From the NCBI RefSeq assembly GCF_026017845.1, contig NZ_CP100416.1, forward strand, positions 9,426,366-9,490,365: a DNA stretch of 64,000 nt. The letters are read 5' to 3'. The notes under the pieces were generated by a model, which saw only the letters and a list, made by a program, of their open reading frames with translations, was not told the DNA's origin and did no database searches. Position 1 is the stretch's first letter. Each line of letters starts with the position of its first letter. Position numbers and translations under genes: made by a program. The stretch comes from Amycolatopsis mediterranei. GTDB taxonomy: Bacteria > Actinomycetota > Actinomycetes > Mycobacteriales > Pseudonocardiaceae. This document shows positions 20,188 through 64,000 of the stretch, piece by piece.

Positions 20188-20196
20188 CCTGAGGCC

Positions 20197-20228
20197 CTGG
20201 ACCGCCGAGCGGCAACTCGGCGGCCCAG
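20197..20228 (+). terminator. hairpin terminator after the regulator/membrane protein operon
   Basis: CTGGACCGCCGAG (20197-20209) pairs with CTCGGCGGCCCAG (20216-20228) over 13 bp with a single mismatch and a 6-nt loop. It begins 9 bp after the stop codon and is followed by an A-rich stretch. Ends transcription before the MMPL gene. Confidence 0.7.
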
Positions 20229-20300
20229 GAAGAAGAAGCAACCACCTCGCCCGAAGGCGAGCTCTCATCGGATCACTCCTTCACGGAAGGACTTTAGTTC

Positions 20301-22439: not shown

Positions 22440-22466
22440 CAGATCTTCTTCGGCACCGTTGCTCTC

Positions 22467-25162: not shown

Positions 25163-25527
25163 CAGATCTTGCGGCCGATTCCGGCGTTCGTCGCGGCGCG
25201 GCCGGCCGATCCGGCTTCGACGATATCGAATCCGGCGGAAAGCGCGAAAACCTCGAGGCGCGTTCGCGAGATCCCCCGGGCAGCGCACGCGATGGCAGGC
25301 ACGGGGATTTCGATACCCGGTGGAGCCCATTCCGGTGATCGTGTCACGAACAACACCTTCTCAGTTCAGTCGGACCGGAAAGAGCTTAGCGATTCCCCGC
25401 GGCCCGGCTACTGGGCCATCCGCGTGAGCCCACACCACCCGATCGGGCACTGTCCCGTTCGACCGGACGCGCCTACCGTAAGCCGTCTCCTTGGGAAATC
25501 CGCACAATGGCGCAGCGGGGAGTACGC
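25163..25527. other. divergent intergenic region
   Basis: 365 bp between the divergent GGDEF-EAL and P450 genes. Short frames on both strands look like extensions or shadows of the flanking genes. I see no RNA gene or repeat. Promoters for both genes should be here; a GGGGAG ribosome-binding site precedes the P450 start. Confidence 0.5.
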
Positions 25528-26826: not shown

Positions 26827-26934
26827 CCCGGGCAGATCTTGGACAGTTTCCGGACAGTTGGCGGCGATCCATGCCGGTCCGCCCGCCCGCGTACTACAAA
26901 CAGGCCGCAGGCACGAGACCACCGGGGAGTGCGC

Positions 26935-28490: not shown

Positions 28491-28507
28491 CCGGCGAGGG
28501 CCGTTCG

Positions 28508-38733: not shown

Positions 38734-38877
38734 GGTTCAAGAACACCGTGCCGGCAGGGGAACGGCATCTTCGGAGGTGCTCAGCGCATAGCACACCCGG
38801 AGGTGCTTCCCACTGCGTGGGCACACCATGCTGACCAGCAGTGACCTGTGTCGGAGACGGAGAGGAACGCGATCCGG

Positions 38878-43254: not shown

Positions 43255-43514
43255 ACGCGCACGAGGAGGACCTGCGGGCGTGGCTGACGACGTTCGTCGC
43301 CGACGTCCTCGACATCGGCACCGAGGAGGTCGACCCGGGCGCGCCGTGGGAGTCGCTCGGGGTCGACTCGGCGATGACGCTGGTGCTCGTCGCCGACCTG
43401 TCGGTGGTGCTCGGCCGGACCGTGCAGCCGATCGAGGTGCTGAGCAACCCGACGATCGACGCGGTGGTCGAGCACCTGGTGACCGTCGAAGCGGTGGGAG
43501 GCGAACGCTCGTGA
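43251..43514 (+). CDS. free-standing acyl/peptidyl carrier protein
   Basis: About 87 aa carrier protein; phosphopantetheine attaches to the Ser in ESLGVDSAMTLVL. Start (GTG) overlaps the NRPS stop and its own stop overlaps the thioesterase start, each by 4 bp. In an otherwise single-module cluster it probably presents the starter acid to the Cy domain. No loading ligase is seen next to it. Confidence 0.88.
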   Translation: MNAHEEDLRAWLTTFVADVLDIGTEEVDPGAPWESLGVDSAMTLVLVADLSVVLGRTVQPIEVLSNPTIDAVVEHLVTVEAVGGERS

Positions 43515-44272
43515 AACCCCGCCTCACCGGCCGGTGGTTCGTCCAGGGCCAGGCGCGGCCCGGCCGGCCCAAGCTGTTCTGCTTCCCGCACGGCGGCGGG
43601 TCGGCCGCGGAGTTCGTCCGCTGGTCGCGCCAGCTGCCGTCCGTCGAGCTGAGCGCCGTCCAGCTGCCCGGGCGCGGGTCGCGGCTGTCCGAACCGGTCT
43701 TGTCCACAATGGACGAGGTGGTCGCCGCGGTGGTCGACGTCATGCCGACCATGGCCCCGTACTCGGTGTTCGGCCACAGCCTCGGCGCACTGGTCGCCTA
43801 CGAGGTCGTCCGCGAACTGCGCCGCACCGGGCGCCGGCTGCCGGACCGCTTGATCGTCTCCGGCTTCCCGGCGCCGTCCACCCGGCGGACCGAGCCGCCG
43901 GTGCACGGCCTGCCCGACGACGAGCTGATCGCCGAGGTGGCCGCGCGCCACGGCGGCCTGCCCGGTGAAATCCTCACCGATCCGGAGCTGAAGGCGATGG
44001 TCGCCCGGTACCTGCGGGCCGACTACCAGGTGCTGGAGACGTACGAGTGGCGTCCGGAGGAGCCGTTGCCCGTGCCGCTGACCGTGTTCGGCGGCCGGGA
44101 CGACTCAATCGTCGAGGCCGAGCTGCGCGCGTGGCAGGAGCACGTGACGGAGGCGGTCACCGTGCGGCAGTTCCCCGGTGACCACTTCTACTTCCGGGAA
44201 AATCCGGCAGTGGTCCTGCGCGCGCTGGCCGCGGTCGTCCGGACGACCGCCGGCGCGGATCGGGCGGCGTAG
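43511..44272 (+). CDS. type II thioesterase
   Basis: About 253 aa alpha/beta hydrolase. LFCFPHGGGSAAEFVRWSRQLP is the type II TE N-terminus, the nucleophile is in FGHSLGALVAYEV, the Asp in VFGGRDDSIVEAE and the His in FPGDHFYFRENP. These enzymes clear or release carrier-bound acyl groups in NRPS systems. With no TE domain in the NRPS itself, it may also release the product. GTG start overlaps the carrier protein stop. Confidence 0.9.
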   Translation: MKPRLTGRWFVQGQARPGRPKLFCFPHGGGSAAEFVRWSRQLPSVELSAVQLPGRGSRLSEPVLSTMDEVVAAVVDVMPTMAPYSVFGHSLGALVAYEVVRELRRTGRRLPDRLIVSGFPAPSTRRTEPPVHGLPDDELIAEVAARHGGLPGEILTDPELKAMVARYLRADYQVLETYEWRPEEPLPVPLTVFGGRDDSIVEAELRAWQEHVTEAVTVRQFPGDHFYFRENPAVVLRALAAVVRTTAGADRAA

Positions 44273-45070: not shown

Positions 45071-45529
45071 GTGGAGGTTAGGGGACCTTACTCGAACATA
45101 AAAGACCAGGTCAAAGCCCTGGAAGAGCTCCGCGAGAAGCTCCCCCGCCTCGATACACCCGAGCCGACCTTGATCAAGCGCGACCGACCCGGCCGGGCCC
45201 GGCAACTCCGTGCCGATCAAATCGAGCAACTGATCGCCGACTACCAGTCCGGCGCGACGGTGTACGAGCTCGGTGACCGGTTCAGCATCGAACGGCGAAC
45301 GGTCAGCACAATCCTCCGCCGACACGATGTGCCGATGCGCCGCCGCGGACTCTCCCCTGAACAGGTCAACGACGCGATCCACCTCTACAACCTCGGCTGG
45401 TCACTCGCCCGAATCGGCACCCAGATGGACGTCACGGCCGACACCGTACGCAAACGCCTCCTCGAACACGGCGTCACCATGCGTGACACCCACGGGCGTC
45501 CGCGCATCGAAGCAGGCACCCCACGATGA
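45071..45529 (+). CDS. double helix-turn-helix protein, copy A
   Basis: About 152 aa, GTG start. The first HTH ([40 protein letters not shown]) resembles the resolvase/Hin-type HTH, and a second HTH follows ([37 protein letters not shown]). The N-terminal ~35 residues are charged and helical. No recombinase catalytic domain is attached. Its stop overlaps the next start as ATGA. Copies occur at 48.4 kb (intact) and 56.1 kb (decayed), each followed by DUF2637 sequence. Confidence 0.78.
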
Positions 45530-47751
45530 CCCGGCCAGCAACCACACTGCCACCCCGATCAGGCTCGAACAGCACTACCGTCGTTCAAGCCGTCACCGTG
45601 CTCATGGGCACCGTCGTCGGCCTCACCTTCCTCTTCGGCTTCGGCAACGTCCTCAACCTCGCCCTCCGCCTCGACGTGCCCACCTGGGTCGCTCCCCTCG
45701 TCGCACCCGCTGTCGACCTCTCGGTCCTCGGGCTCCTCCTCGGCATCCGACAACTGGCCCTGGCCGTGGCGACACCGCGACAACTGCGACCAGCTCGCCG
45801 CTTGCTGTTCTTCGCCAGTGCGGTCACTTTGGCACTGAACGTGGCCGACCCGATCGTGGCTGGCGAGTACGGCAAGGCTGCGTTCGATGCCGTGGGACCG
45901 TTGCTGCTGATCGGCTGGGCGGAAGTCGGCCCGGGCCTGTTGAGGGCGCTGACCATCACACGTCAGCCGGGCGATGCAATGTTCGACGACGCGAAACCAG
46001 TGCAGGCTGCGTTCGCCGACGAACCGACCGCTGTCAGGCAGGCAGCGCTGGGGTCGTCCGGCGAGGACACCAAGCCCAACAGCGCTCCGACCGATGGGCG
46101 GAGTAGCCGTACTGAATCCACCATGGTTAACGACGAGGCAGCACCGCCAGTCGAAAGACCCCTGCTTGCCGGACGCTACCGAGTGGACGGTTCGCTTGGC
46201 CGCGGCGGCATGAGCGAAGTCTTCCACGGCTACGACGAACGTCTTGATCGACGGGTGGCGATCAAGCTGCTGCGGCCACCCTCTCCAGGGTCTGTCCCGG
46301 TCGCACCGAACAGCCCCGAGGCAGTCGAAATCCTCGACACTCTCAATCGTGATCGCAAGCGTTTCCTGCGCGAGATCCGCACCACCGCCCAACTGGAACA
46401 CCCCGGCACACCGGCCGTCTATGACACCGGCGTCGAGACCGCCCCGGATGGAAGCACTCAGCTGTGGCTGGTCATGCAGCTGCTACGCGGCTCGACGTTG
46501 GAAGCAACGCTCGATCACACCGATTACACGACATCGCCACCGAGTCTCGCCTGGGCGGCAGCGATCGCGACACAGATCGCCGCGGTACTGGCCGACGTAC
46601 ACCGAGTTGACATAGTCCACCGCGATATCAAGCCGGCCAACGTGATGATCGTCGATGGCGGCCTGGTCAAGGTGCTTGACTTTGGCATCGCGATCCTGCG
46701 TGGAGCAGGAGCATTGCCACGACTGACGCAGGTAGACCGAACCGTTGGTACACCCGCCTATATGTCGCCGGAGCAGTGGCTCGGGCAGGCAGTGACGTCC
46801 GCGTCCGACATTTACTCACTCGGTTGCTTGTTCTACGAGCTGTTGGTCGGGGACGTACCGTTCCATGCGACGACCGACATGCCGCTGCGTGCCCGTCACC
46901 AGCTGTCAGCGGTGCCGTCAGTGCGCGCTCGGCGGACCGACATCCCGGTAGCTGTCGATACGCTGGTGACCTCGATGCTGGCCAAGGACGCACAACGGCG
47001 ACCCTCTGCCGAGGCGGTGTACGACGCACTCATGCCCCTGGCGTCGGCGCCAAGCGACACGTCCGTGGAAGGCGAAAATCGAGACCCGACCTCGCCGTTC
47101 CGTCGGCCGTTGTTGGCCCCGGCCAGGCGTGAAAGGCTTGCTGGCGGCCGGGACAAGCTAACGGACACCGAGTTCGAGCAGCTCACGGCCAACGTGCAGG
47201 TGCTGCTGGACAACGACCGGCCGGCTGAGGCGATTAATCTGCTCGAGGACGGCGTTGAACGTGCACGCCACGATCCAGCACTGACACTTCGGCTACGCCA
47301 TTACCTGGCCGCGGCGTTGTTCTACGCCGGGGAGTACACGCGCGCTGCTTCGCTCTTCGACGTCGTCGGGCGAGACTACCGCGAGCATCTACCGTTCGCC
47401 GACCCGTACGTCCTGGACTGCGCGTATCACGCGGGCCACGCATACGCTGAAATCGGCAAGCCGGACAAAGCGCTCCCCCAATTGCGGTTCTACGTGCTGA
47501 ATGCCAAGACATCAGCGGACGAGGACGCGGTGGCGAAGGTCCTTGAATCGCGTTTCGTCATAGCTCAGATGCTCGGCGCCGCCGGACATCCCGACGAAGC
47601 GCTGACCGAACTGGAAGCGGTCCGTCCACTGCTGGCTGAAGCCTTCGGCGCCGACTCGACCCAGGTCCGCAACGTTGACAAGCAAATCGCCCGATTGAGG
47701 TCGGGCTGGGAACACGGGTCGCCTCAGGGCCGCGGCCAGTCGGATCGGTGA
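45526..47751 (+). CDS. DUF2637-Ser/Thr kinase-TPR fusion protein
   Basis: About 741 aa. Residues ~15-150 are a DUF2637-type membrane domain ([53 protein letters not shown]), known from actinomycete mobile elements. A Hanks kinase spans ~215-480: [38 protein letters not shown]. The last ~200 residues contain TPR-like helical repeats ([37 protein letters not shown]). Start overlaps the HTH gene. The DUF2637 part is nearly identical in DNA to copy B, where no kinase is attached, so the kinase looks recombined onto it. Confidence 0.85.
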
Positions 47752-50277: not shown

Positions 50278-52008
50278 TTAGCGACCGGTGCTGTCCGTCA
50301 GCTCCCTACGGACCAGCTCGGCAAACCGCTCGTTACGCACCGCCTCCCCCAACGGCACCCCGGCGGCCCGTTCGGCGTCGATGGCCCGCTGGATCACCGG
50401 CAGCAACTCGCGGACGACTAGCTTTTCCGCAGCTTCCGCATTCCAGATTACCTTCAGAATTTTGTCGCACTCCTTCTGCGCAGCTCTACCATTGGGCGGC
50501 AGTTTCACCGAACCAACCAGCTTCTGCCGGATCATCGCCATCAAGTGATATTGGGCGGGCCGGTAGCCGCGATTGATACGCTGGTTCCGGATCATCCACT
50601 CCAATCGGTACCAGGTTGCCGCGGCCGTGTAGTAAAGGATCGCCGGCTGGCCAGTGACGAACAGTTCAGTACCGCGTGCCTTGATCAGCTCCTGATAGTG
50701 GCCTACGCGGGATGATTCGTTCAGGAACATGGCCAGGTACGCGCGGCTGAGTTGGGCGCGGCTGATGACCCGGGTCTTCTCCACGTCCTTGCGTTCGCTG
50801 TACTGTTTCGCGCGACGTTCATAGAACAACTGGTGTGGCTTATCCCAGCCGAGGGTGAAAAAGTCCTCCAGCTCCTTGTGGAAGTCCTCCCTCGCAGCCA
50901 GGTCCTCGTCGCTGACAGGGGTCTGCTGGTTGGTTGCGGCCACAATACCCTGGATCACATCCTCGTCCACTGAGTGAACGATGTGGACACTGACGAAAAC
51001 TTGATCGGTGAGCTGATCACGCTCGTGGAACAGCACGTGACAGGTCTGACAGCCGTTCACGATCTGGAAATCGTCCAACACGAAATCGTCGCCGACACGG
51101 TCCAGTTTCCGTGTCACGATGGTGACGCCGTTGTTCATCACGGCGAACCTCTGCCGTTTGTCCGGATCCCGCAGGGTGTCCCGAATACCGCTGTTGACCC
51201 TGTTGTAGCCCTGGAAGGCGCGCACGTTGCTCTCGAACAGGTTCTCACGCAGCTTTCCCGAGCCGTCATCCAATATGATGCAGACCAGCTCCGGCGCGGC
51301 GATCAGCCCGACGAACGACTGTTCAACGCCGGGAGCCGCCGGCACGGCGAACTGTTTCGGCACCGGCAAGGTGACCCGGACGGTGCTGGTCGCCTGCTGG
51401 TACAGCGCACGCAACTCCCGCCAGTTCACGCAGCGCACGTCGGTCGTATCGAATCGGTTGAGCTTGTCCAAATGCTTCTCGGCCGACCGCGCCTTGCGGT
51501 TGATCATATCCGAGATCTGATCGCCGGTGGTCACATAACGGACGTGCAGTTGCGGCAGTTGACCGGCCAACCGGGCTGAGTTCTCGAACACGACGTCCAA
51601 GCAGCCTCGCAGGCTGGCCACGTCGGCGGATACAACGTACGGGATCCCGCCGGACCCACACAGGTGACCAAGATTCTCCGCGAGATCCGAGATCACCTTG
51701 GTCTCGAACTTACTGCTGGTTTTGGCCTGGATGATCACCACCTGCACCTGCGGCCGCTTGCGGCTCATCGCCGCCCGCACTTCCGTTGGGTCCCGATACA
51801 GGTCCCCGTCGATCAGGACCGCGTACGCGTCGATGCCGAGATCGTTGCCGCCGCCGGTACGGTACGCGTCCGGGTTGAAGGGGTCGTTGTAGTACGAACT
51901 GAGCACGCAATAGGCGGCGAACGCCTCGAATGCCTCGGACTCCTGTAGTTCGGTCAGGTCCTGGTCCTGCTGGAAGCCCTTGACCAGGCTCTCGATCACC
52001 TTCTCCAC
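50278..52008 (-). CDS. AIPR-family (abortive infection phage resistance) protein
   Basis: About 576 aa. The N-terminus has GGGNDLGIDAYAVLID (Asp56, Asp60) and VVIIQAKTS (Gln94-Ala-Lys96), matching a PD-(D/E)xK-like nuclease core. The middle has FESNVRAFQGYNRVNSGIRDTLRDPDKRQRFAVMNNGVTIVTRKL and DFQIVNGCQTCHVLF, the hallmark of the AIPR family (Pfam PF10592). It is the last gene of a minus-strand operon, 25 bp after the double ATPase. A DNA- or RNA-cleaving effector controlled by the ATPase is inferred. Confidence 0.88.
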   Translation of the reverse strand: MEKVIESLVKGFQQDQDLTELQESEAFEAFAAYCVLSSYYNDPFNPDAYRTGGGNDLGIDAYAVLIDGDLYRDPTEVRAAMSRKRPQVQVVIIQAKTSSKFETKVISDLAENLGHLCGSGGIPYVVSADVASLRGCLDVVFENSARLAGQLPQLHVRYVTTGDQISDMINRKARSAEKHLDKLNRFDTTDVRCVNWRELRALYQQATSTVRVTLPVPKQFAVPAAPGVEQSFVGLIAAPELVCIILDDGSGKLRENLFESNVRAFQGYNRVNSGIRDTLRDPDKRQRFAVMNNGVTIVTRKLDRVGDDFVLDDFQIVNGCQTCHVLFHERDQLTDQVFVSVHIVHSVDEDVIQGIVAATNQQTPVSDEDLAAREDFHKELEDFFTLGWDKPHQLFYERRAKQYSERKDVEKTRVISRAQLSRAYLAMFLNESSRVGHYQELIKARGTELFVTGQPAILYYTAAATWYRLEWMIRNQRINRGYRPAQYHLMAMIRQKLVGSVKLPPNGRAAQKECDKILKVIWNAEAAEKLVVRELLPVIQRAIDAERAAGVPLGEAVRNERFAELVRRELTDSTGR

Positions 52009-52033
52009 GGCGAGTCCACTCCTTGCACAGGCG

Positions 52034-55000
52034 TCAGTCCTGCCGAGCGCGGGCGATGACTTCTTCGACGGTCAGCGGGCTCGGCGGGTGGTAGCTCAGG
52101 CAGATTGGGGTGCGGATCTTCTGGAACGCCAAACCCTCGGCGACGGCGTAGAACTGGCCTGCGCTCAACCGGGAGATGTCCGGCACTGAACTGGATTTCG
52201 CGGCTGCCATTTCCTTGGCTGCAGCGACCTGCGGCGGGCTGTTGAGGAAGCCGAAGAACTGTGTGGCGGCGTTGCCGGAAATCCGGTTGTGGATACCGCG
52301 TGGCGCCTGCGTGGCGAACACCAGGCCGAGCCCGTACTTGCGGGCCTGCGAGGCCAACGCAAGGGTGCTGTACGTGCTTGCGGTCAGCGAACCGGACGGA
52401 GCGATGGTCTGCGCCTCATCCATGACCAGCAGCCCGCCGAGTGGCCGGTCGCCGGCGGGATGCTGCTTGATCCAGGCGAACAGGGCCATCTGGAGTTGGT
52501 TGACGAAGCTCTGCCGTTGTTCCTCAGCGGGCAAGCCAATCAGGCTGATCACCGAGATCCGGGCGCGTTTGCCAGCCGCCGGGGTGAGCAGCACGCCCGG
52601 GTCCACCGGCTCGCCAACGCCGCCGAACAACGGATCGTTGATCATGGCCGCGCGTAGTGTTTGCGCCATGTCCGCGGCCATTTCATGTGCTTTGGCCAGT
52701 GGTGTTACGTCATCGGGCAGGTCACCGAGCAGGTCCAAGAAATGGCTGAGCCCGCCGCCGGCCTCGTACGCGAAGTACTGCAACGCCTGGTTGAGAACGG
52801 CGCGGGACCGCTCGGCCTTCGCGGTTGCGCCGTCGGCGCGGGCGCGTGGTGCGAGCGCTGCGACAGCCGTGTCGATGGCCTGGCGGAACTCGTCCGGGTC
52901 GTCGGCGACCGCGGCGAAGTCGGGCAGCGGACGGAACGTCAACGGCCGGCCCGTTTCCCGACGGGGCGTCCATAGCACGACGTCGGTGTTGCGAAGGTAG
53001 TCGTCGGCGCGGACCGCGTCGTTGGGCCCCCAGGCATCCGGTGGCTGCGGCCACGAGTCGCCGAGCCGGGCCAGATCGTTGTTGGGGTCGAGCACGATCG
53101 CGGACACGCCACGCAGCGCACATTCCTCGACCAACCGGCGGATCAACACCGTCTTACCCGACCCAGACCCGGCAAAAATCGCCGTGTGCTTCCGCAACGA
53201 TTCCAACGCGATCGTCACCGCCGCGCCGGTGTCCATCCGGTCGCCAACGTGCAGTGTCACCGGGTCCACCGTCACCCCACCTGATATGGCCGTGGCAGGG
53301 TTGGTGGTGTCCGGGTCGGCCATCGGCCAGGACACATCGGACGGTTGCGGCTCAGGGGTCGGTTCGGGTTCGGGACCCGGTGGCTCCGCGTCATCCGGCG
53401 GGTCGCCGAACACCTCGCGCAGCAAGGCGGTGTGGCTGGCCGGGCGGCGACTGAGCAACCATGCGTTGAACTGGGCCGGTGGCTGGGTCGCAGCTAGTCG
53501 CTCCAATGCCGCGAACGTGCGGAAGTCGATCTCCAATGTCTCCCTTGGCAGTCGGATCACGACTCCGCCCGCCGTTTCGAATTCCTGGACCTTCTGTCGG
53601 GTCTTGCGACCGTTCGACCAATCGCCGGTGCGCAATAGGTAGACTTTACGTTTCGGCGCCACCACGTCCAGGCCGGTGGTATTCAGGACTCGGTCAATCC
53701 GGTTGATCACTGCTCGCCCGTCACTCCATGCGATCGCCCGAAACGACCAATAAATCTTGTCCTCGGTGCTCTCGTCCAAGGTCCGTCGCAGTTCGGCGTG
53801 CAGGGCAGGATTGCCGGCGGCCATCGTTTCCGTAGGCACCTCGTACTGGAAGCGTTCTTCGCCCTGTTCGGCAACCCACCGATTCAAGGCGGGACACAAG
53901 AGGTCCGGTATGCGCTGATCCTCCTGGTACGGGTCGAGCGCCTTGTCGATCTCCGCGATCATGTTGACATCGTTCACCAGGGCCGCCAGCTGTCGGTCTA
54001 TCTCGGTGAGTGCGCCATGATCGACCGGAACTATTGCAGGCCCCGGTCGCGGCGCGGCTGCGTCAGCGCGGCTCGACTCGGCGAGGCTGCTCAGTTCGGT
54101 GACCTCATTCGCGTCCAGACACACCTGGACGTGGGTGTCGACCCGGCGAATGAGGCCGCGAGCGGTGAACCGGACTGCGTCGGCGAACGCCTCCAACCTT
54201 ATTGGCCAACTCGGATAGGGCGGAACGAAGCCGACCTTTTCGAATTTGAGCGCGAACCGTCTTTCTATGAGCGCCTGCCCGACCGCCGCCACCGGGATGG
54301 TGTCCAATTGCTCGGCACGGCGGAACCGTTGCTCGACAGAGCCCGGCGCATAGTCCCGGATGCCCTGCCAGACCAAGTCCATACAGGCTACCAGAACCAG
54401 TGACCGGCGGGTGGCTTCGCGCAACTCCATGAGGCCGCTGCCGACATCCTCAAACAGCCGCCGCCTGGGCAATCCCATCGAGTCCGAAGTAGCGTCGGAC
54501 GCGGCTTCAGATGTGGCGCTGTCGGCTCCTCGTTCCGACTGTTTGATCAGGGTATCGATTTGATCCAGCGCGATCACACTTGGCCCGGTGAGCGCGATCA
54601 ACTTGAACAGTTCACCGACCATTTCGTGCGATGTCCTAGCATTGGCGCGAAGGCCCCATTCGGCTCGTTCGCCAACTACCGCTTCGCTTTCCGACGAAAG
54701 GTAGGCGATGCCGACCTCCCTGGTCGTCACCGAATCGCTGGCCAGCAACGCCAAGGCTCGCAGGGTGTGCCCGCATTCGAATGCGAGCCGCCGATCAACC
54801 TGATCCAGCGCCCCTACCATGTCATCAAGTCCGGCCCGGGTTGGTTTGTCCAGTCCCACGAGTTGCCGATGCAAGGATTCGGGCAAATTGAGTTTCCGGG
54901 ACAGCTCCCGCCGCAGGATGACCCCCTGTTCCAAACCGTCACTGCCGAACTGGAGCAGACCGCTGAGCACGTCGAGCACGACCTTCTGCCAGAAAGATCG

Positions 55001-55291
55001 TTCGTGCCGTAGTTCAAGGGCGAAGAAGTAGCCGCCTGCCGCGCTGACTCGCTTCCGCACGGTGGCGACGAGATGGGTCTTGCCCGAACCGGGCCGTCCG
55101 GTGACGACCACGCCGATCGGGCTCTCCGCGTCACTAGCCTTGGCGTCAGCGAAGCCAGCCATGACCGTCCGCAACGCCCGATCGTTGAGACCGTCGACGT
55201 GCGCTTCGGGCTCCGTCCACACGCTTTCCCTGGTGGGCGCCCAGTTGGTCTTGGCCAGTTCCGTCAGTGCGTCGCGTTCGATCGCCTTCAT
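52034..55291 (-). CDS. double ATPase: N-terminal AAA plus C-terminal HerA/FtsK-like
   Basis: About 1085 aa. The first P-loop ATPase has Walker A GRPGSGKT (65-72) and Walker B VIALDQIDT (~245-253). A middle region (~400-680) includes KVYLLRTGDWSNGRKTRQKVQEF and a Pro/Glu-rich linker. The second ATPase (~690-1075) has AGSGSGKTVLIRRLVEE (~705-720), GLLVMDEAQTIAP (~953-965), ATQAPRGIHNRISGNA and an RLSAGQFY arginine-finger region, as in HerA/VirB4 translocases. Start overlaps the winged-helix gene by 4 bp. Likely the motor of the three-gene system, pumping or sensing DNA for the AIPR protein. Confidence 0.86.
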   Translation of the reverse strand: MKAIERDALTELAKTNWAPTRESVWTEPEAHVDGLNDRALRTVMAGFADAKASDAESPIGVVVTGRPGSGKTHLVATVRKRVSAAGGYFFALELRHERSFWQKVVLDVLSGLLQFGSDGLEQGVILRRELSRKLNLPESLHRQLVGLDKPTRAGLDDMVGALDQVDRRLAFECGHTLRALALLASDSVTTREVGIAYLSSESEAVVGERAEWGLRANARTSHEMVGELFKLIALTGPSVIALDQIDTLIKQSERGADSATSEAASDATSDSMGLPRRRLFEDVGSGLMELREATRRSLVLVACMDLVWQGIRDYAPGSVEQRFRRAEQLDTIPVAAVGQALIERRFALKFEKVGFVPPYPSWPIRLEAFADAVRFTARGLIRRVDTHVQVCLDANEVTELSSLAESSRADAAAPRPGPAIVPVDHGALTEIDRQLAALVNDVNMIAEIDKALDPYQEDQRIPDLLCPALNRWVAEQGEERFQYEVPTETMAAGNPALHAELRRTLDESTEDKIYWSFRAIAWSDGRAVINRIDRVLNTTGLDVVAPKRKVYLLRTGDWSNGRKTRQKVQEFETAGGVVIRLPRETLEIDFRTFAALERLAATQPPAQFNAWLLSRRPASHTALLREVFGDPPDDAEPPGPEPEPTPEPQPSDVSWPMADPDTTNPATAISGGVTVDPVTLHVGDRMDTGAAVTIALESLRKHTAIFAGSGSGKTVLIRRLVEECALRGVSAIVLDPNNDLARLGDSWPQPPDAWGPNDAVRADDYLRNTDVVLWTPRRETGRPLTFRPLPDFAAVADDPDEFRQAIDTAVAALAPRARADGATAKAERSRAVLNQALQYFAYEAGGGLSHFLDLLGDLPDDVTPLAKAHEMAADMAQTLRAAMINDPLFGGVGEPVDPGVLLTPAAGKRARISVISLIGLPAEEQRQSFVNQLQMALFAWIKQHPAGDRPLGGLLVMDEAQTIAPSGSLTASTYSTLALASQARKYGLGLVFATQAPRGIHNRISGNAATQFFGFLNSPPQVAAAKEMAAAKSSSVPDISRLSAGQFYAVAEGLAFQKIRTPICLSYHPPSPLTVEEVIARARQD

Positions 55292-55923
55292 GACTGTTCA
55301 ATGGACAGCAGGTGCACGTCCTCTCCGCCGGTGCGCAGCGCGGCGGCCCGGTCGGCCGGGGTGAGGGTTTTCTGATTGAACTCAGGATTGAGCCGCACTG
55401 ACGGTTCCAGGGCTAGCCGCAGAAGGGCGGCGTCCAGGTCGGAACGCGCCACGTCGGCGAAGGCGCGCCGCAGCCGAGTCAGGCTGACACCGGCACTAGG
55501 GGCGGTAGCCAATTCGGTGTACGCGGCGCGGATTCGGTCCGTCATGTCAACGGCCGGGGTCGACTCGTCGTCGAGGACAAAGATGTCCGCGATACGCAGG
55601 TCGGATCGTGCCATGAAAGCGGCGAACCGGCGGGTCAGCGAGTATTGCAGCCGGGTGGCTTTTGGTGCGCCCTTCGGGGTGGGGCTGCCCAGTTCGTCAC
55701 CGCAGCGCCGCCAACCCTCGTCGGTCAGTTCGTGCACCCATGCCCGGTATCGACCGGTCTGCCACGCCTTGATGTAGCCCAATTCGATCAGGTGTTGCCT
55801 CTCCTCTTTTTTGATCTTGATGCCCAGTTCGTCGGTGAGGTTGGCATTCGACGCCTCGCGGATCAGGGTCATCAGCGCGAGCAGCGCGGATCGTTCCGGC
55901 AGGGTGAGGTGCGGGTCCGCCAT
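55288..55923 (-). CDS. winged-helix-like protein of the HerA-AIPR operon
   Basis: About 211 aa from ATG 55923 (MADPHLTLPERSALLALMTLIREASNANLTDELGIKIKKEERQHLIELGYI). The N-terminal ~85 residues look like a winged helix that ends with a RAWVHELTDEGWRRC wing. The C-terminal part (RLQYSLTRRFAAFMARSDLRIADIF, IRAAYTELATAPSAGVSLTRLRRAF) is helical and unassigned. First gene of the operon; ATGA overlap with the ATPase gene. It may recognise DNA or load the ATPase. Confidence 0.78.
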   Translation of the reverse strand: MADPHLTLPERSALLALMTLIREASNANLTDELGIKIKKEERQHLIELGYIKAWQTGRYRAWVHELTDEGWRRCGDELGSPTPKGAPKATRLQYSLTRRFAAFMARSDLRIADIFVLDDESTPAVDMTDRIRAAYTELATAPSAGVSLTRLRRAFADVARSDLDAALLRLALEPSVRLNPEFNQKTLTPADRAAALRTGGEDVHLLSIEQS

Positions 55924-56145
55924 GGGTCCGAACCTACCTGGATACCGACATGACGGGGAGAGTCGTCGCCGGAATGACGCATTGATCCCGATAGGCCTTG
56001 ATGCTGGGCATTGACACGAAAGGAGTAACTGGGGACGGGCCGGCGCACGAGCCAACGCCCGGGAGTACACGAACCTGGTCGGCGTTGTCATCGGTCAAGA
56101 CGGCCTCCCATGCTCCGGGGCCATGCGGGTGGAAGCTCCGTGGCG

Positions 56146-57420: not shown

Positions 57421-60400
57421 ATGACGGGCGTTAGCGCAGGCGGCACAAGGTCCGCGCAGGAGTACCTATCCGATCTTGACCTCAACTGGCGACGACGGCT
57501 GAGCCTCGTGTCGCTGGTCGCCGAGGCGCTTGACTCGATCTCCTCGCGCGACTGCGCGACAGCGCTGGAGCTGATCGGCGGTCGGTACTCGGGCCTGGAC
57601 GGGGCAGACCGACAGCGGCTCCTACGACGGTGGCCGGCCGTGCATGTCGTGACCACCGCGTTCGTCGCTGCCGAACGATATGACCACGCAGGTCTTTGGC
57701 CGCACCTTAGATCGTTCCTCGATCGCGACATTGGCCAAGCGTTCAACCCTGAATGGGGTGGAGCGTTCTTGCGCAACCTCGAGCGACTTGGGATGCCGAC
57801 TTTCGTCGCACAAGGCGATGAAGCGGGGCAACGATACGTGGGCCGGATGCTGTTGCACTGCGGTGTTCCGACCAACTGTCTGGAGAACTACTTCCGGCTG
57901 GTCACCGATCGTCGGACGGCGTCGCCGGGGTTGACAGCGGCGGAGTTGCTGGCATGGGTCGCCTCGCGGGCGACGGATCGTCACCTCCACAACGTGGACA
58001 AGCCTGTCGAACGTTTCCTGCGCTACGGCGGCGAGTTCGCAGCCGATGTCACTGATCGAGTTTTCGATCTGCTTGATGCAGTATCGGCCGGCGGCGACGG
58101 CCTCGATGTGCAACTGCCCGAAAGATTCCGCCTCAAGGCCCTCGAACTCAACGAACGCGGAGAGATTGCACCTGCGGACGTCAGTGTGCCAACGAAGGTA
58201 CCTGAGGTGCAGCCCCACCTCGTGATCGACCCGTTCGGCCGTGGCGTCCTCCTGAGACTGCCACCAGTCGGTGATGCGCCCGACGGAACCGCGGTCTGGA
58301 ACGTCGGGCTTGACGCAGACGTTCAGCGTGTTGCGACGAAAGCTCTGTGGCCTGGCGCGAACGAACCGGCACCACAGACCGATGTCGTCATTCCAAAGCC
58401 CGTTCGATTGGCGACGGCAGCGCTGTTGGGGAAGGAGCATCTCCAGGCGAACCTTTCCGTCGTTGATGACAACGACCCGGCAATTTTCTTCGGGGAAGAT
58501 GGCGCCCGCCTGTCTCCTGTCCGCCCCCTCCCAGCGGGGCTCGTGTGGGTCCTGTTCCCGGGCGATGAACCGGACAAGCTCGAAGTCACCGGTGACTTAT
58601 CCAGACTCTCGGAAAGTCCTCTCTCCCCGGGCTGGTCCGGTTGGTGCCTGCTGCTGGTCGATCTCGCTCGCGCCCAGAGTGTCCGGCTCGCTGGATCCGA
58701 CGCCGTCCACACTGTTCGCAACCACACTGGGGCTCGGGTCGCAGCGATGGAGTTGACGCTCGGCGTCCGCACGACAACGGGAATGCCAGTGTACGCCGAC
58801 GTCCCGTCGATCGAGTTGCCGGACGATCTCCGACACGCTGGTTGGCGAGTTGACATCCGCGACTGCGACGGCGAGACGCTCGCACAGTGGAGCACCGAGG
58901 ACGACAGCTGGAACCCGAACGAGATCTGGGCTCGGCTGCCGCGGCCGCTGTTGGGAACTTTCACCGTGCGTGTTCGAGGCCCATGGGGCCGGGGCGTTAC
59001 CCGTACGCTCGCCATCGCTGAGGGCCTGTCCGTCAAGTTCGACCCGAGCTGGCGTCGACTCACCGCAGCGGGGTTACAACCGGTGGCGGTCACCGTCGAT
59101 GCACCGCCTGACCTAACCGTAAGCAGGTCACGAACCGACCTAGGCGAGCGGCAACGTGGTGCCACGGTCCTACTGTCGGCGGGCACTACTGCATGTCGCG
59201 TTCAGCTCACACCGCCACATATGTCGGTCGCCTATGAATCGAAAGCTGGCGCGTCGATGGCGTCCATCCGGCCGGTGACGCTATTCGGCGAGGATATCCG
59301 CGAATCTCCCGGTACATTCATTGTGAATGTCGGCGTCTCGGCCGACCCGACGCTGCACGTGCTAGGAACGACCGGGCTGCTTCAAACCCTCGCTCCAAGC
59401 GTCGGTCGTAACGGTGTCTACCGGTTCAATCTCGCCCAGCTCGCAGACACGATCGCCGCCCACCCACACGTCCGGCTGTGTCTCAGTGCGGACGGTGCAC
59501 TGCAGGTCGCGGTAATCCGACCGAAGCGGCTCTATCGCGAGATCACCGCCCATGAAGGAACCCTGATCCTGAGCCAATCCGTCGAGTTCGACGGTCTCAT
59601 GGCACTCGTCTACTCCTTGCGTGCCCCGTGGCGCGAGGCCGAGGCTCTTCCCGTCGTCCACGGCCGGGCTGCACTTCCCCGCTGGCTGTGCGACGCGGGC
59701 CCGGTGATCGTCACCGTCCGGATTGACGACGCGTGGGTGCCGGAGTCCGTGCCGGACTGGCCAGCACGAGGAACAGCTTCGTTCGTCGACGCTGACGGTT
59801 GGCTCGCGGAGGACGATCCGGAGGAGAACGCCCTTTCGGCATACCTCGCCGGCGTGCGCCCGTTCCCTGAACGCATCACTGACTTCAGCCGACTGTGGTC
59901 GGTACGCGGACTCATCGGCGCCCTCGCCCTAGGTGATCGCGTGACAGCCGTCAGCAGAGCCATCGATGCGGCCGTCTACTCCTCCCCTCGCGACGCCCTT
60001 CTCTCGCTCACCGCGTCGAAAGCGCCGGGGTCATCAATCTCGTCTCTGCTCATCGAATCCGGCTTGGTGCGGGCAAACCTCATCGCGGCGCATGACGACC
60101 GGGCTCCCGAGTGGTCGGTCCGTGGTGCACTGCCTGCCGCCTTGCTCTCAGCCGCCGACGCAGGGTGGTCTCGAGAAGAAATCGACGCGGCAGCCACCGT
60201 GTGCGGCGCTCAGGTGACCGAGATCCTCGCAGGCAAAGATCCAGTCGCTACCGCGGGACGGCTGGACGCGGCAGCCGATCTGTACGACGAAGCCTCGGCC
60301 ATGCGAGAAGCGTTCGTGCGTCAAGCAGGACTTGTGCCGCACGGCTTGCTCAGCGGCGACTCCCGTGTGATCGGAACGATGGACCTGGTGAGGGAACGCA

Positions 60401-60750
60401 AGGACCCACGGCTGCATTGGCTCATCGCCAACTCGCGAAAAATCTACGAAGAGATGACTCGGCTGCTTCGGATAATCAATGACCCGACCACCACGGCTGC
60501 CTTCGACGCACGCCGCCACGCCACGGCGATCTCGGGATGGCGCGTGGTGCCGTCCCTGTCCTTGGGATGCGCGCTCGCCGCGCGGCACGCCGCCCGGGGC
60601 CACGGAGTTGCTTCAAGTTGGCTTGAGCGGCAACGGCGCTGGTGGAGCGACCTAGGCGAGGTCGTACCCCAGCTAGTGGCAACTGACCTGATCCTTGCCG
60701 AATTGCTCGTCGCCAGCATCTCCGCCCGGAACTCTGAGGTAGCCAAATGA
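57421..60750 (+). CDS. large protein of unknown fold, DruH-like
   Basis: About 1109 aa, no signal peptide or TM. ATG 57421 is favoured by GGGGA five bases upstream; upstream ATGs at 57382 and 57325 are possible. N-terminal LNWRRRLSLVSLVAEALDSI and ERLGMPTFVAQGDEAGQRYVGRMLLHCGVPTNCLENYFRL are helical. The middle (~320-760) looks beta-rich and repetitive (LVIDPFGRGVLLRLPP, GTFTVRVRGPWGRGVTRTLAIAEG). The C-terminal ~250 residues are helical. I recognise no enzyme motif. It overlaps the next gene, a large DEAH helicase, as ATGA. Size and partner fit DruH of type III Druantia; that assignment is inferred. Confidence 0.72.
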   Translation: MTGVSAGGTRSAQEYLSDLDLNWRRRLSLVSLVAEALDSISSRDCATALELIGGRYSGLDGADRQRLLRRWPAVHVVTTAFVAAERYDHAGLWPHLRSFLDRDIGQAFNPEWGGAFLRNLERLGMPTFVAQGDEAGQRYVGRMLLHCGVPTNCLENYFRLVTDRRTASPGLTAAELLAWVASRATDRHLHNVDKPVERFLRYGGEFAADVTDRVFDLLDAVSAGGDGLDVQLPERFRLKALELNERGEIAPADVSVPTKVPEVQPHLVIDPFGRGVLLRLPPVGDAPDGTAVWNVGLDADVQRVATKALWPGANEPAPQTDVVIPKPVRLATAALLGKEHLQANLSVVDDNDPAIFFGEDGARLSPVRPLPAGLVWVLFPGDEPDKLEVTGDLSRLSESPLSPGWSGWCLLLVDLARAQSVRLAGSDAVHTVRNHTGARVAAMELTLGVRTTTGMPVYADVPSIELPDDLRHAGWRVDIRDCDGETLAQWSTEDDSWNPNEIWARLPRPLLGTFTVRVRGPWGRGVTRTLAIAEGLSVKFDPSWRRLTAAGLQPVAVTVDAPPDLTVSRSRTDLGERQRGATVLLSAGTTACRVQLTPPHMSVAYESKAGASMASIRPVTLFGEDIRESPGTFIVNVGVSADPTLHVLGTTGLLQTLAPSVGRNGVYRFNLAQLADTIAAHPHVRLCLSADGALQVAVIRPKRLYREITAHEGTLILSQSVEFDGLMALVYSLRAPWREAEALPVVHGRAALPRWLCDAGPVIVTVRIDDAWVPESVPDWPARGTASFVDADGWLAEDDPEENALSAYLAGVRPFPERITDFSRLWSVRGLIGALALGDRVTAVSRAIDAAVYSSPRDALLSLTASKAPGSSISSLLIESGLVRANLIAAHDDRAPEWSVRGALPAALLSAADAGWSREEIDAAATVCGAQVTEILAGKDPVATAGRLDAAADLYDEASAMREAFVRQAGLVPHGLLSGDSRVIGTMDLVRERKDPRLHWLIANSRKIYEEMTRLLRIINDPTTTAAFDARRHATAISGWRVVPSLSLGCALAARHAARGHGVASSWLERQRRWWSDLGEVVPQLVATDLILAELLVASISARNSEVAK

Positions 60751-63700
60751 CACGAAGCATCGACGCCGTCGCAACATCAGCACAGATCAAGGCGACATAC
60801 CGACGCTATCTGCAGTCACTTCTGGCAGTCCGAGACCCGCTGCTCGACGCAGCGCTACGGCGGGCGATCGACACAACTAGTCTCCTCGACAAGGGCCCCT
60901 ATCTCGAGGCGACCCCGCCGTATGCTCCCGGAGCCACGGCTCACGAGCTGATCGACGAGGGCGTTCTCGCATCCGGCTTCACGCGGCTCGCCAGCAACGC
61001 GATGCCAATGGATCGACCGCTCTACGTGCATCAGGAGCGCGCCATCCGCAAGGTTGCAGCTGGGCGCAATGTGGTCGTCGCAACGGGAACGGGTTCGGGC
61101 AAGACGGAATCGTTCCTGCTCCCCATCCTGGATCGGCTCGTGCGGGAAGACGCAGAGGGAACCTTAGGCCCAGGCGTCCGCGCGCTGCTGCTCTACCCGA
61201 TGAACGCCCTGGCCAATGACCAGCTGAAACGTCTGCGCCAGCTCCTGGCTACCTACCCGGCAATCACGTTCGGGCGCTATACCGGCGACACCGAGCACGA
61301 CCCGGTCAAAGCTCGCGAGCGCTTCGGCGAGCTGAACATCGGTGAGCCGATCCTCCCGAACGAACTCTTGAGCCGTACAGAGATGCGAGCGACGCCGCCA
61401 CACTTGCTGCTGACGAACTATGCGATGTTGGAGTACCTGCTCCTGCGCCCGAGCGACCTGCAGCTGTTCGGCTCCGGGGGCACCTCTACATGGCGCTTCA
61501 TCGTTGTCGACGAAGCGCACGTCTACGACGGTACGCAGGGCGCCGAGATCGCGATGCTTCTGCGCCGCGTCCGAGACCGAGTCGCTCCGGGTTCCGCCCT
61601 TCAATGCATCGCGACATCCGCGACCGTCGGCGGCGATTCCGAGCCGTCAACAGTGACCAAGTTCGCGTCCAGCCTGTTCGACCAACCATTTGAGTCGGTC
61701 GACGGCGACCCGTCGAGGCAAGACTTGATCACCGCCGAGCGGCTCCCAGCTCCGGAAGGCCCATATTGGGGACCGCTCACGGCAGCCGACTACATCCGGC
61801 TCCTCGACGAGCCAGACCACGATGCGGCTATCGGCGCGCTCGCGAGCAAAGCTGGATTCTCTTCGAGCCCCGGTGCGGGTGCCACTATCGCGCTGAGCCA
61901 CGAACAGGCTCTCGCAACGCTCCGGTCGACGCTGGCCAGCGGTCCGAAGAGGTTCGATTCGGTTGTAGAAGCTGTATTCGGCAAAGATCCGCACGGGCCT
62001 GCCGGGCTCGCCGCCGCGGTCAAAGTCGCGAGCAGCCTCAGGAACCAGGACGGCACCGCAGTTCTTTCCGCTCGATATCACCTGTTCCTGCGCGCGACTG
62101 AGGGCGCCTTCACCTGCCTGAGCCCCAATGGCCCTCACGTGCATCTCGCGCGTCACGACCTGTGTCCTGAATGCGACACCCGAGTATTCGAGCTGGGGTC
62201 CTGCAAGCGATGCGGCGCCGTGCACATCGTGGGCTCATCGGAGATCGTCGACGGCGTCATCCGCCTCCGTCCTCGCAAGGCCACCGAAAAGGGCACATGG
62301 CTCGTACTCGGTGATCAGCCTGAGCTGATCGACGAAGACGAAGAAGCAGTAGCTGACGAGGGTAGAGGGGTCACGGGAAACAACGCCAAACTCTGCGCCA
62401 AATGCGGTTCGCTCAACGACTCGCGCGCTACCGCTTGCGCTGACCGAAGCTGTAGAGCCAGCGACCTAAGGCCGGTGCGGCGCCTCAATCAAAAAGGTGA
62501 CGAAATCGCCGGCTGCCTCGTCTGCGGAGCACGGGGTGCTGGCACCGTACGTATCTTCGAGACTGGCGCGGACGCCAGCGGAGCCGTAATCACAACGTCG
62601 CTTTATCAATGCCTTCCACCGGGATCGGACCCAAGGGAAGCGGATCTCCCGGGCGAGGGGCGCAAGCTGCTCGCGTTCAGCGACAGTCGCCAGGCGGCCG
62701 CCTACTTCGCCCCCTACCTCGAAGACTCCTACCTGCGCCTCCAGCGCCGGCGGTTGATCTCGCAGGGATTGATTGCTTCCGGCGCAGATGAAGAACCGGT
62801 CGGCATCGAGGACCTGAGTTTCGAAACGAGGAAGGCAGCCAAGCGCACCCGAGTCTTCCCTGGTCGACTGACCGCCCAGCAGGAACTCCGCCAAGTCGCA
62901 CCATGGGTCATGGCTGAGGTCCTCGCCACCGACGACCGTCAGTCGCTAGAGGGGCTTGGCTTGGCAAGCATCGCCCTGTACCGCGACAGGTCTTGGCAAG
63001 TCCCGAAGCCCCTACTGGATCTTGGTCTTGGGCCCGGTGAGGCATGGGCCTTCCTGCAGGAACTCGTCCGAACACTCCGTCAACAGGGCGCGGTCAGCAT
63101 GCCCGAGGACGTACCGCCCAACCACGAAATATTCGCACCTCGCCTCGGGCCGATCCGCGCCCGCCTGTCTGGACCTGAATCAGTTCGCAAGGTTTTGTCC
63201 TGGCTGCCGGGGAAAGGAACCAACCGTCGCGTTGACTACACCCGCCGAGTTCTCACAGCCTTGAACGTGGACACCGACGCGATCGCTCTCTTGAAGGGCA
63301 TTTGGGCGTTCTTAACCAATCCGAATTCGCCGGTGGACTGGCTTCGGTCATCGACGGAACATGCGCTGGGCATCGCCTACCAGGTAGACCACGAGTTGCT
63401 GAGACTAGTGTGGGTTTCCGAACGAAATCCAGTCCATCAGTGCACCACCTGCCGGCGCATTTCCCCATTCACCGTGCGTGGCGTCTGCCCGGCATTGAGC
63501 TGTGACGGCACGCTGGCGCCGTTCGTTCCACTAGATCTGGACGACGATATCGACCACTATCGATCGATCTACAGGTCGATGAACGCCGTGCCGCTGTCCG
63601 CAAAAGAACACACCGCGCAGTGGTCGAACGTCGAGGCGGCTTCCATCCAGCAAGACTTTATCCGCGGCCGCGTCAACGCACTGTCATGCTCGACGACGTT

Positions 63701-64000
63701 CGAGCTCGGTGTCGACGTAGGCGAGCTTCAGGCAGTGATGCTGAGGAACATGCCGCCGAACACCGCCAACTACATCCAGCGGGCTGGCCGAGCAGGCCGA
63801 CGCTCCGGGTCAGCTGCGCTCGTGGTGACATATGCGAATCGACGTAGCCATGACCTGACGCATTTTGCCGAACCGGAGGTGATGATGTCCGGTGTGATTC
63901 GAGCACCATACGTACCGCTCGTCAACGCCCGGATCAATCGTCGGCACGCACACTCGGTGGCGCTGGCCGAATTCTTCCGCTGGTACTTCGCGTCGACGAA
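60747..64000 (+). CDS. DEAH-box helicase with zinc clusters, DruE-like, cut by the window edge
   Basis: At least 1084 codons, open at the right edge. Helicase domain 1 has Q-like LYVHQERAIRKVAAGRNVVV, Walker A TGTGSGKTES (~112-121), LLYPMNALANDQLKRL, and DEAH in FIVVDEAHVYDGTQGAE (~250-265). Cys clusters follow (CPECDTRVFELGSCKRCG, CAKCGSLNDSRATACADRSC, CLVCG, and later CTTCRRISPFTVRGVCPALSC). Helicase domain 2 motifs V-VI are TFELGVDVGELQAVM and YIQRAGRAGRRSGSAALV (~1010). This is the DUF1998/MrfA-like superfamily 2 layout of DruE, usually 1700-2100 aa. Start overlaps the upstream gene by 4 bp. Confidence 0.85.
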   Translation, partial: MTRSIDAVATSAQIKATYRRYLQSLLAVRDPLLDAALRRAIDTTSLLDKGPYLEATPPYAPGATAHELIDEGVLASGFTRLASNAMPMDRPLYVHQERAIRKVAAGRNVVVATGTGSGKTESFLLPILDRLVREDAEGTLGPGVRALLLYPMNALANDQLKRLRQLLATYPAITFGRYTGDTEHDPVKARERFGELNIGEPILPNELLSRTEMRATPPHLLLTNYAMLEYLLLRPSDLQLFGSGGTSTWRFIVVDEAHVYDGTQGAEIAMLLRRVRDRVAPGSALQCIATSATVGGDSEPSTVTKFASSLFDQPFESVDGDPSRQDLITAERLPAPEGPYWGPLTAADYIRLLDEPDHDAAIGALASKAGFSSSPGAGATIALSHEQALATLRSTLASGPKRFDSVVEAVFGKDPHGPAGLAAAVKVASSLRNQDGTAVLSARYHLFLRATEGAFTCLSPNGPHVHLARHDLCPECDTRVFELGSCKRCGAVHIVGSSEIVDGVIRLRPRKATEKGTWLVLGDQPELIDEDEEAVADEGRGVTGNNAKLCAKCGSLNDSRATACADRSCRASDLRPVRRLNQKGDEIAGCLVCGARGAGTVRIFETGADASGAVITTSLYQCLPPGSDPREADLPGEGRKLLAFSDSRQAAAYFAPYLEDSYLRLQRRRLISQGLIASGADEEPVGIEDLSFETRKAAKRTRVFPGRLTAQQELRQVAPWVMAEVLATDDRQSLEGLGLASIALYRDRSWQVPKPLLDLGLGPGEAWAFLQELVRTLRQQGAVSMPEDVPPNHEIFAPRLGPIRARLSGPESVRKVLSWLPGKGTNRRVDYTRRVLTALNVDTDAIALLKGIWAFLTNPNSPVDWLRSSTEHALGIAYQVDHELLRLVWVSERNPVHQCTTCRRISPFTVRGVCPALSCDGTLAPFVPLDLDDDIDHYRSIYRSMNAVPLSAKEHTAQWSNVEAASIQQDFIRGRVNALSCSTTFELGVDVGELQAVMLRNMPPNTANYIQRAGRAGRRSGSAALVVTYANRRSHDLTHFAEPEVMMSGVIRAPYVPLVNARINRRHAHSVALAEFFRWYFAST

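What the first reader, a model, noticed from the sequence alone, without database searches (positions are those of the whole stretch)
57421..64000. Type III Druantia-like pair (unknown 1109-aa protein + large DEAH helicase) at the right edge
A ~1.1-kaa protein without known motifs is translationally coupled to a DEAH helicase with Cys clusters and a DUF1998/MrfA-like layout. This is the composition of Druantia type III (DruH-DruE). The beta-rich repetitive middle of the first protein is unusual and its function is unknown in the family.
Basis: inference. Interest (0 to 1): 0.65.

Follow-up and report, generated by a model that had tools for sequence, protein, structure and literature searches.

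The report
Divergent Druantia III-B antiphage gene pair
Two adjacent genes in an actinomycete bacterium are a very diverged version of a known anti-virus system (Druantia type III), in which the likely sensor protein has drifted so far that standard search profiles miss it and the helicase partner has no recognisable DNA-cutting tail.

Summary
Window 57421-60750 encodes a 1109-aa protein that overlaps by 4 nt a YprA/DruE helicase; the helicase is complete in the host genome (1567 aa, to window-equivalent 65450). It matches PADLOC DruE (629 bits) and falls in an actinobacterial clade (support 100) apart from canonical III-A and ARMADA rows. The partner matches no PADLOC, Pfam (above cut-off) or NCBIfam family, and 16 relatives match no PADLOC model. 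Profile-profile comparison nevertheless aligns its family collinearly with eight canonical DruH proteins (score 98; highest of 80 shuffled controls 27), though its C-terminal third alone is not above controls. Its predicted layout (helical, chain of Ig-like domains, helical) is the one published for DruH. A DruE gene lies beside it in nearly every relative examined. DruE ends 40 aa after the Zn domain, without PLD nuclease, as described for 'Druantia type III-B' in a 2025 preprint; the antiphage pair MSMEG_1253/1254 of M. smegmatis is probably the same branch (inferred from residue numbers).

The parts
57421..60750 (+). DruH-like protein, 1109 aa (frame open from 57325)
   Evidence: remote DruH homology
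57454..58155 (+). N-terminal helical region of the DruH-like protein (residues 12-245)
   Evidence: AlphaFold2 model; aligns with DruH N-terminus
57856..57882 (+). H-x-G-[IVM]-P-x-x-C-L motif (residues 146-154): H, G, P and L in 41 of 41 aligned rows (38 distinct), C in 40; G148 and P150 line up with G137 and P139 of E. coli DruH
   Evidence: function of G136/G137 in E. coli DruH from PMC13192584
58186..59799 (+). chain of Ig-like / macroglobulin-like beta domains (residues 256-793)
59818..60744 (+). C-terminal helical region (residues 800-1108)
60747..64000 (+). DruE/YprA helicase, first 1084 of 1567 aa in the window; continues to window-equivalent 65450 (L002:10816); MZB domain residues 1450-1527 lie outside the window
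61089..61106 (+). helicase motif I TGSGKT (K119)
61509..61520 (+). helicase motif II DEAH (D255)
63780..63800 (+). helicase motif VI RAGRAGR (A1016)

Best explanation
The pair is a Druantia type III defence system of the actinobacterial III-B branch: a highly diverged DruH plus a DruE helicase without a recognisable nuclease tail. Shown here: two intact overlapping genes, DruE family and clade, remote DruH homology, the predicted helical / Ig-chain / helical layout, recurrence as a pair, and a variable site beside a tRNA gene. Inferred mechanism: (1) the Ig-like chain of DruH recognises a phage structural protein during infection; (2) the N-terminal face around the invariant HxGxP motif switches DruH on; (3) DruE loads on exposed 3' single-stranded phage DNA and translocates; (4) since this DruE has no PLD nuclease, phage DNA is blocked or damaged by activated DruH and/or host nucleases, so the phage genome fails to circularise or replicate and the cell is lost or arrested; (5) without infection DruE keeps DruH harmless. 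Steps 1 to 5 lean on published work on E. coli DruH/DruE and on the M. smegmatis pair; none was tested here. My confidence in the identity is about 0.9 and in the mechanism about 0.45.
For: DruE: PADLOC 629/584 bits, MZB, PDB 9tu7_Y 'DEAD/DEAH box helicase' 281 bits against 74 for YprA 6znp, clade of 15 actinobacterial rows with support 100, apart from 9 III-A and 5 ARMADA rows. DruH: hhalign of 41 rows (38 distinct, window included) with 8 canonical DruH, score 98.3, probability 96.6%, collinear 78-889/74-907; 80 column-shuffled controls at most 26.6; N-terminal segment 31.2, reached by 0 of 120 controls, middle 59.2 against at most 22.9 in 20. L089, one of the eight, matches PDB 9tud_A 'DruH' end to end. 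Layout in the model equals the published DruH description. DruH more divergent than DruE in 14 of 14 comparisons with the window, as reported for III-A. DruE lies beside it in 15 of 15 named loci with room, in 16 of 16 (L067-L082, 53), 8 of 8, 9 of 9 further loci long enough to show it, and 16 of 18 directly in L041-L058. No PLD: helicase stops 40 aa after MZB. M. smegmatis DruE residues K119, A292 and A1016 (PMC13316683) have the same numbers and motif places here and in M. xanthum.
Against: No sequence profile of DruH matches the protein or 16 relatives; HMMER with one family's profile on the other found nothing either way. The C-terminal helical segment (20.1 vs control max 20.6) and the first Ig-like part (19.4 vs 19.5, and not at a collinear place) are not above controls; a narrower N-terminal cut scored 29.6, reached by 1 of 120 controls. 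With L089 as master the probability is 92%, and realignment keeps only 138 columns. A more distant group of relatives (7 rows) shows no similarity to DruH by itself (1.9%, 67). DruH 9tud is not among the 50 fold matches shown, so the layout comparison rests on text. One row of the III-A clade, L085 (1705 aa), also lacks a long tail, so tail loss does not define III-B. The M. smegmatis link is weak for DruH (4 of 11 named residues at one offset for the window, 6 of 11 for M. chubuense) and partial for DruE (3 of 9 in the window, 5 of 9 in M. xanthum; D225 is Y in all six proteins checked). No defence activity was tested.
Confidence: 0.78

Rival explanations
1. The partner is not a DruH homologue: an unrelated Ig-rich protein took the same place next to DruE, making this a separate Druantia type.
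For: No hit to DruH models in PADLOC for the protein and 16 relatives; C-terminal and first Ig-like segments not above controls.
Against: Whole-length profile-profile score 98.3 against 26.6 at most in 80 controls; N-terminal and middle segments above controls and collinear; same size, gene order and layout as DruH.
Confidence: 0.08
2. It is a housekeeping DNA-repair pair of the YprA/MrfAB kind rather than a defence system.
For: DruE shares the MZB domain with MrfA/YprA.
Against: DruE models 629 bits against 142 for the best NCBIfam helicase; PDB DruE-like 9tu7 281 bits against 74 for YprA; patchy presence, 12 of 297 family and 19 of 394 class genomes, host included; lies in a low-GC3 variable stretch beside a tRNA gene and other candidate defence genes; the partner has no Pfam nuclease match.
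Confidence: 0.04
3. A decayed or inactive copy.
For: No nuclease domain found on DruE.
Against: Both frames intact; helicase motifs I, II, VI and the invariant DruH motif are kept. Of the 14 other III-B helicases in the tree, the three scanned have no Pfam nuclease and the other eleven, read by eye, end shortly after the last Cys cluster (75), so the short form is the rule.
Confidence: 0.05
4. Part of an ARMADA or DISARM system.
For: In three Mycolicibacterium-type genomes the same pair is followed by a BrxHII/DrmD-like helicase gene, with PglX-like and second YprA-like genes seen in two of them.
Against: No such helicase in the 73 kb around the window's pair; other matches to DruE in the genome are weak, E 4e-11 or worse.
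Confidence: 0.02

Closest known systems
Druantia type III-B / 'type III-like' branch (PMC12458937; representative helicase GIH50614.1)
   Same: DruE with MZB, distinct branch, most often no nuclease domain (sections, legends and passages read)
   Different: Representative sequence itself not compared; in what I read the paper says little about the partner protein
M. smegmatis MSMEG_1253/MSMEG_1254 type III Druantia (PMC13316683)
   Same: Two overlapping genes, 1132 and 1667 aa; DruE motif residues K119, A292, A1016 have the same numbers; authors note no canonical nuclease domain (sections read)
   Different: Its DruE is 100 aa longer and the overlap is 17 bp; sequence not at hand, branch membership inferred
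Canonical Druantia type III-A of E. coli (DruH 9tud, DruE 9tu7; PMC13192584)
   Same: DruH-DruE order, remote DruH homology, helical/Ig/helical layout, G-x-P motif in the essential N-terminal surface
   Different: E. coli DruE ends in two PLD domains; 13% identity in the DruH profile alignment; separate DruE clade
ARMADA / DISARM
   Same: YprA-family helicase
   Different: BrxHII and PglX (ARMADA) or split DrmA/DrmB (DISARM) not found here

Membership tests
Druantia type III (broad) | DruH then DruE as a two-gene operon | tested here: met
   4-nt overlap; order kept in relatives
Druantia type III (broad) | DruE: YprA SF2 helicase with MrfA Zn-binding domain | tested here: met
Druantia type III (broad) | partner homologous to DruH | tested here: met
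   profile-profile only, not for every segment; sequence-profile search negative
Druantia type III (broad) | helical / Ig-like / helical DruH layout | tested here: met
   predicted model, against the text of PMC13192584; no coordinates compared
Druantia type III (broad) | antiphage activity needing both genes | not testable with these tools
   -
Druantia type III-B | DruE branch distinct from III-A | tested here: met
   tree, support 100 for 15 rows
Druantia type III-B | DruE usually without nuclease domain | tested here: met
Druantia type III-B | clusters with representative GIH50614.1 | not tested
Druantia type III-A (canonical) | match to PADLOC DruH models | tested here: not met
   P0001 at E up to 0.1, 16 relatives at E up to 1; control YjiT matched 11 DruH models
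Druantia type III-A (canonical) | two C-terminal PLD domains on DruE | tested here: not met
   one row of the III-A clade (L085, 1705 aa) also lacks the tail
[quoted passage not shown]
   (BrxHII-like query, 73 kb); no such domains in the neighbours scanned
DISARM | helicase and DUF1998 module in separate genes | tested here: not met
   one 1567-aa protein

The most novel reading that the evidence does not exclude
In this branch DruE has lost its cutting role and the diverged DruH is both phage sensor and toxic effector, held in check by DruE: a sensor-toxin restrained by a DNA-tracking helicase, rather than a helicase-nuclease. This fits the M. smegmatis report that DruH alone is lethal and that DruE, or even the YprA relative SftH, neutralises it.
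Probability: 0.3. Interest if true: 0.62.

Novelty: new member of a known kind. Interest (0 to 1): 0.4.

Why it matters
It indicates that DruH extends well beyond what PADLOC's models detect, so tools that need a DruH hit probably under-count type III Druantia in Actinomycetota. It gives a family of 38 distinct aligned sequences, an invariant motif (HxG[IVM]PxxCL) that lines up with the essential N-terminal surface of E. coli DruH, and a DruE without a recognisable nuclease, which together make the question 'which subunit harms phage DNA in Druantia III?' directly testable.

Tried and rejected
Tried without result: Pfam, NCBIfam and PADLOC on the DruH-like protein (17-19; one sub-threshold HTH_31 match in Pfam ignored); tblastn in plasmids and phages (no match); PDB sequence search with the family profile (four matches at E 0.036 or worse, taken as chance); family PDLC00044 in 296 phylum genomes (no match, but the control rang nowhere, so uninformative); Foldseek and VIA-align (generic Ig-like, filamin and macroglobulin-like domains, VIA Z under 8; 9tud DruH not in the rows shown, which shows nothing as the library stops at April 2026); search for the M. 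smegmatis genome in 396 genomes of its genus (none of the 24 with a match has the 7.0 Mb that I recall for it); a second copy of the tRNA 3' end in the window and flanks (none found at up to 8 mismatches in 30). Integrases were not searched for.

Rejected: canonical III-A (tree, no PLD), DISARM and ARMADA (no partner genes found here), repair pair, decayed copy. The residue fingerprint of MSMEG_1253 (79) is weak: of the 25 best rows shown only L024, L069 and L079 exceed their own 60 shuffles, and slightly. Rows left out of the 41-row alignment: the fragment L025, the short or cut L050 and L052-L058, the near-copies L042, L044, L051 and L067, and L076; L094-L101 came later. Three of the 41 rows duplicate others. 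Of the eight L008-L015 proteins seven were aligned as a separate group (L012 left out). In pair counts, L025 and L036 and L096 and L101 were set aside as cut or tiny fragments without DruE.
Full report
WHAT IS THERE. The window ends inside an operon. The first gene, 57421-60750 (+), encodes 1109 aa; its stop overlaps the start of the second gene at 60747 by 4 nt. The host genome is a single 10.6 Mb contig; taking the next stretch shows that the second gene is complete, 1567 aa, ending at window-equivalent 65450. One same-family genome (G255) carries a DruH-like protein identical to that of Saccharothrix obliqua, so the host family is Pseudonocardiaceae (inference; family name as printed).

THE HELICASE. 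PADLOC gives DruE1 629 bits and DruE3 584 bits; DpdJ (98) and DrmA (53) score far less. Pfam finds DEAD, Helicase_C and MZB. Motifs I (K119), DEAH (D255) and VI (RAGRAGR) are intact. The best PDB match is 9tu7_Y, a 2108-aa DEAD/DEAH helicase, aligned to its residue 1713; [quoted passage not shown] coli DruE (PMC13192584, section read) are missing. In a tree of 32 helicases the window lies with two Mycolicibacterium rows inside a 15-row actinobacterial clade (SH-aLRT 100), apart from 9 III-A rows (100) and 5 ARMADA rows (99); the deepest forks are weak (73) and some long branches meet. The labels III-A, ARMADA and type I/II for the plasmid rows are mine, from their neighbours. One III-A row, L085, is 1705 aa and also lacks a long tail. 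[quoted passage not shown]

THE PARTNER. It matches nothing in PADLOC or NCBIfam and nothing above cut-off in Pfam. Sixteen relatives match no PADLOC model at E up to 1 (8, 8), while the control, E. coli K-12 YjiT, matched 11 DruH models. Matches to it were found in 12 of 297 genomes of the family (4 over nearly the full length, the host included), 19 of 394 of the class and 24 of 396 of the genus of M. chubuense, and in 17 named loci. HMMER with one family's profile on the other found nothing in either direction. Profile-profile alignment of 41 rows (38 distinct) with 8 canonical DruH proteins from plasmid records gave probability 96.6%, score 98.3, collinear over 718 columns; 95.9% with query and template exchanged; 0.1% for reversed DruH; at most score 26.6 in 80 column shuffles. 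In pieces: N-terminal residues 1-250 scored 31.2 (0 of 120 controls reach it); 60-250 scored 29.6 (1 of 120); the middle 250-795 scored 59.2 (20 controls, at most 22.9); the first Ig-like part 19.4 (19.5) and the C-terminal part 20.1 (20.6) are not above controls. The N-terminal, middle and C-terminal pieces land in collinear places, the first Ig-like piece does not. With L089 as master the probability was 92% and realignment kept only 138 columns. A more distant group of relatives, seven rows, shows no similarity to DruH by itself (1.9%) but is clearly kin to the 41 rows (100%). hhalign values are pairwise, not database-calibrated.

STRUCTURE. The model (mean pLDDT 81.8, pTM 0.57) is helical at 12-245, beta at about 266-790 and helical at 800-1108. 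Fold comparison finds Ig-like, filamin-like and macroglobulin-like domains within 256-348, 436-534, 601-702 and 703-793, all at Z under 8, which may mean only a common arrangement. PMC13192584 describes DruH as helical N- and C-terminal regions around a core, with Ig-like domains at 257-464, 465-631 and 632-748. The essential N-terminal surface of E. coli DruH includes T131/L132 and G136/G137; in the profile alignment this stretch (YLHTLACEGGLP in L089) lines up with YVGRMLLHCGVP here, where H146, G148, P150 and L154 are the same in 41 of 41 rows; all 8 canonical proteins keep the second glycine and 7 of 8 the proline. This block is among the better-kept parts of the family, though not always the best: residues 131-165 average 56%, 50% and 27% identity to the window in three groups of relatives, while 256-348 reaches 64% in the first and 703-795 35% in the third.

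CONTEXT IN RELATIVES. The helicase lies beside the DruH-like gene in 15 of 17 named loci; the other two contigs end. In L041-L058 it follows directly in 16 of 18; in L041 three genes lie between (one starting like an Hsp70), and in L052 both genes are truncated, only DruE residues 789-1298 being seen. It is directly beside in 16 of 16 loci L067-L082, in 8 of 8 of the more distant group and in 9 of 11 further loci, the two misses being tiny or cut fragments. The sets overlap in several genomes. Junctions, read by eye, fit 4-nt overlaps in 12 of 15 (window included), 1-nt in two, none in one. DruH is more divergent than DruE in 14 of 14 comparisons with the window, e.g. 48 vs 69% and 34 vs 54%. 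In three Mycolicibacterium-type genomes a helicase gene follows whose best PADLOC match is DrmD (309 bits), with BrxHI/HII at 174; PglX-like and second YprA-like genes come next in two of them (L135/L136, L137), while L023 ends inside the first. In Rhodococcus globerulus the helicase and PglX-like genes are divergent. I read this as ARMADA next to III-B, which would extend the ARMADA-Druantia III association reported for E. coli (PMC12458937, abstract and legends). In the window's genome no such helicase lies within 73 kb and other DruE matches are weak.

CONTEXT IN THIS GENOME. Frames picked by a GC3 heuristic from window 45071 to the end of DruE have GC3 of 0.69-0.83, against mostly 0.84-0.97 in the flanks, and the stretch ends near a tRNA-Ala(CGC) gene at window-equivalent 66740-66813. 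In 13 of 13 other genomes of the genus the best match to this region starts within 5 bases of the 3' end of that tRNA, and in one of them (G1330) genes mostly collinear with window 16576-29836 abut the same tRNA. This is a variable site; no repeat of the tRNA end was found and integrases were not searched for.

HOW IT MOST LIKELY WORKS. Published for E. coli: DruE prefers 3'-tailed DNA and cuts long DNA; DruH is the likely sensor, with dimer-dependent nuclease activity (abstract and sections read). Published for M. smegmatis: both genes are needed, DruH alone is toxic and DruE neutralises it, phage DNA circularisation and replication are blocked, a minor tail protein activates the system, and the authors see no canonical nuclease in either protein (abstract and sections read). 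The two papers differ on stable DruH-DruE contact: none seen by mass photometry in E. coli, an interaction by two-hybrid and mutants in M. smegmatis. The M. smegmatis DruE residues K119, A292 and A1016 fall at the same numbers and in the same motifs in the window and in M. xanthum, so I infer the same branch; D225 does not fit (Y in all six proteins checked) and the other named residues differ in the window. I propose: DruH senses a phage structural protein through its Ig chain, switches through the HxGxP face, and together with a non-cutting DruE on 3' ssDNA stops phage DNA processing. Which subunit does the damage is open.

VERDICT. A new member of a known kind (Druantia type III-B), with a DruH too diverged for the detection profiles tried. 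Literature searches for Druantia with DruE, with DruH and with 'type III-B' listed no paper whose title or abstract start describes this locus.

Noticed in passing
window 50278-56091 (-): Three-gene operon divergent from the Druantia pair: 267-aa unknown, AAA/HerA-like ATPase (1085 aa, weak mad8/HerA matches) and AIPR protein (PADLOC AbiU 377 bits). The HerA-like protein has matches in 156 of 297 family genomes at E up to 0.001, many weak.
   Followed up: partly
window 45071-47751 (+): HTH protein followed by a Ser/Thr kinase with TPR repeats at the left end of the low-GC3 stretch.
   Followed up: no
window-equivalent 66740-66813 (L002:12106-12179): tRNA-Ala(CGC) looks like a variable site in the genus: the frames picked next to its 3' end differ in the five relatives read; homology among them was not tested.
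   Followed up: partly
L023, L135/L136, L137, L037: ARMADA-like genes lie next to the III-B pair in Mycolicibacterium-type genomes and in Rhodococcus globerulus.
   Followed up: partly
L159:5421-17998: DruH and DruE separated by three genes, one beginning like an Hsp70/DnaK protein (read by eye): a possible nested system.
   Followed up: no
L053-L058: Short DruH-like frames (502-661 aa) beside DruE, with no match beyond about residue 735 of the window protein.
   Followed up: no
L008-L015: More distant DruH-like group beside DruE that has a gap at the HxGxP block in the alignment.
   Followed up: no
L039:1-4491 (-): Kinase (PD-T4-6 type) and DruE-like helicase matches in one frame next to a III-B pair; PADLOC also lists MkoA.
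   Followed up: no
window 38848-44272 (+): Single-module NRPS with methyltransferase domain, followed by a thioesterase.
   Followed up: no
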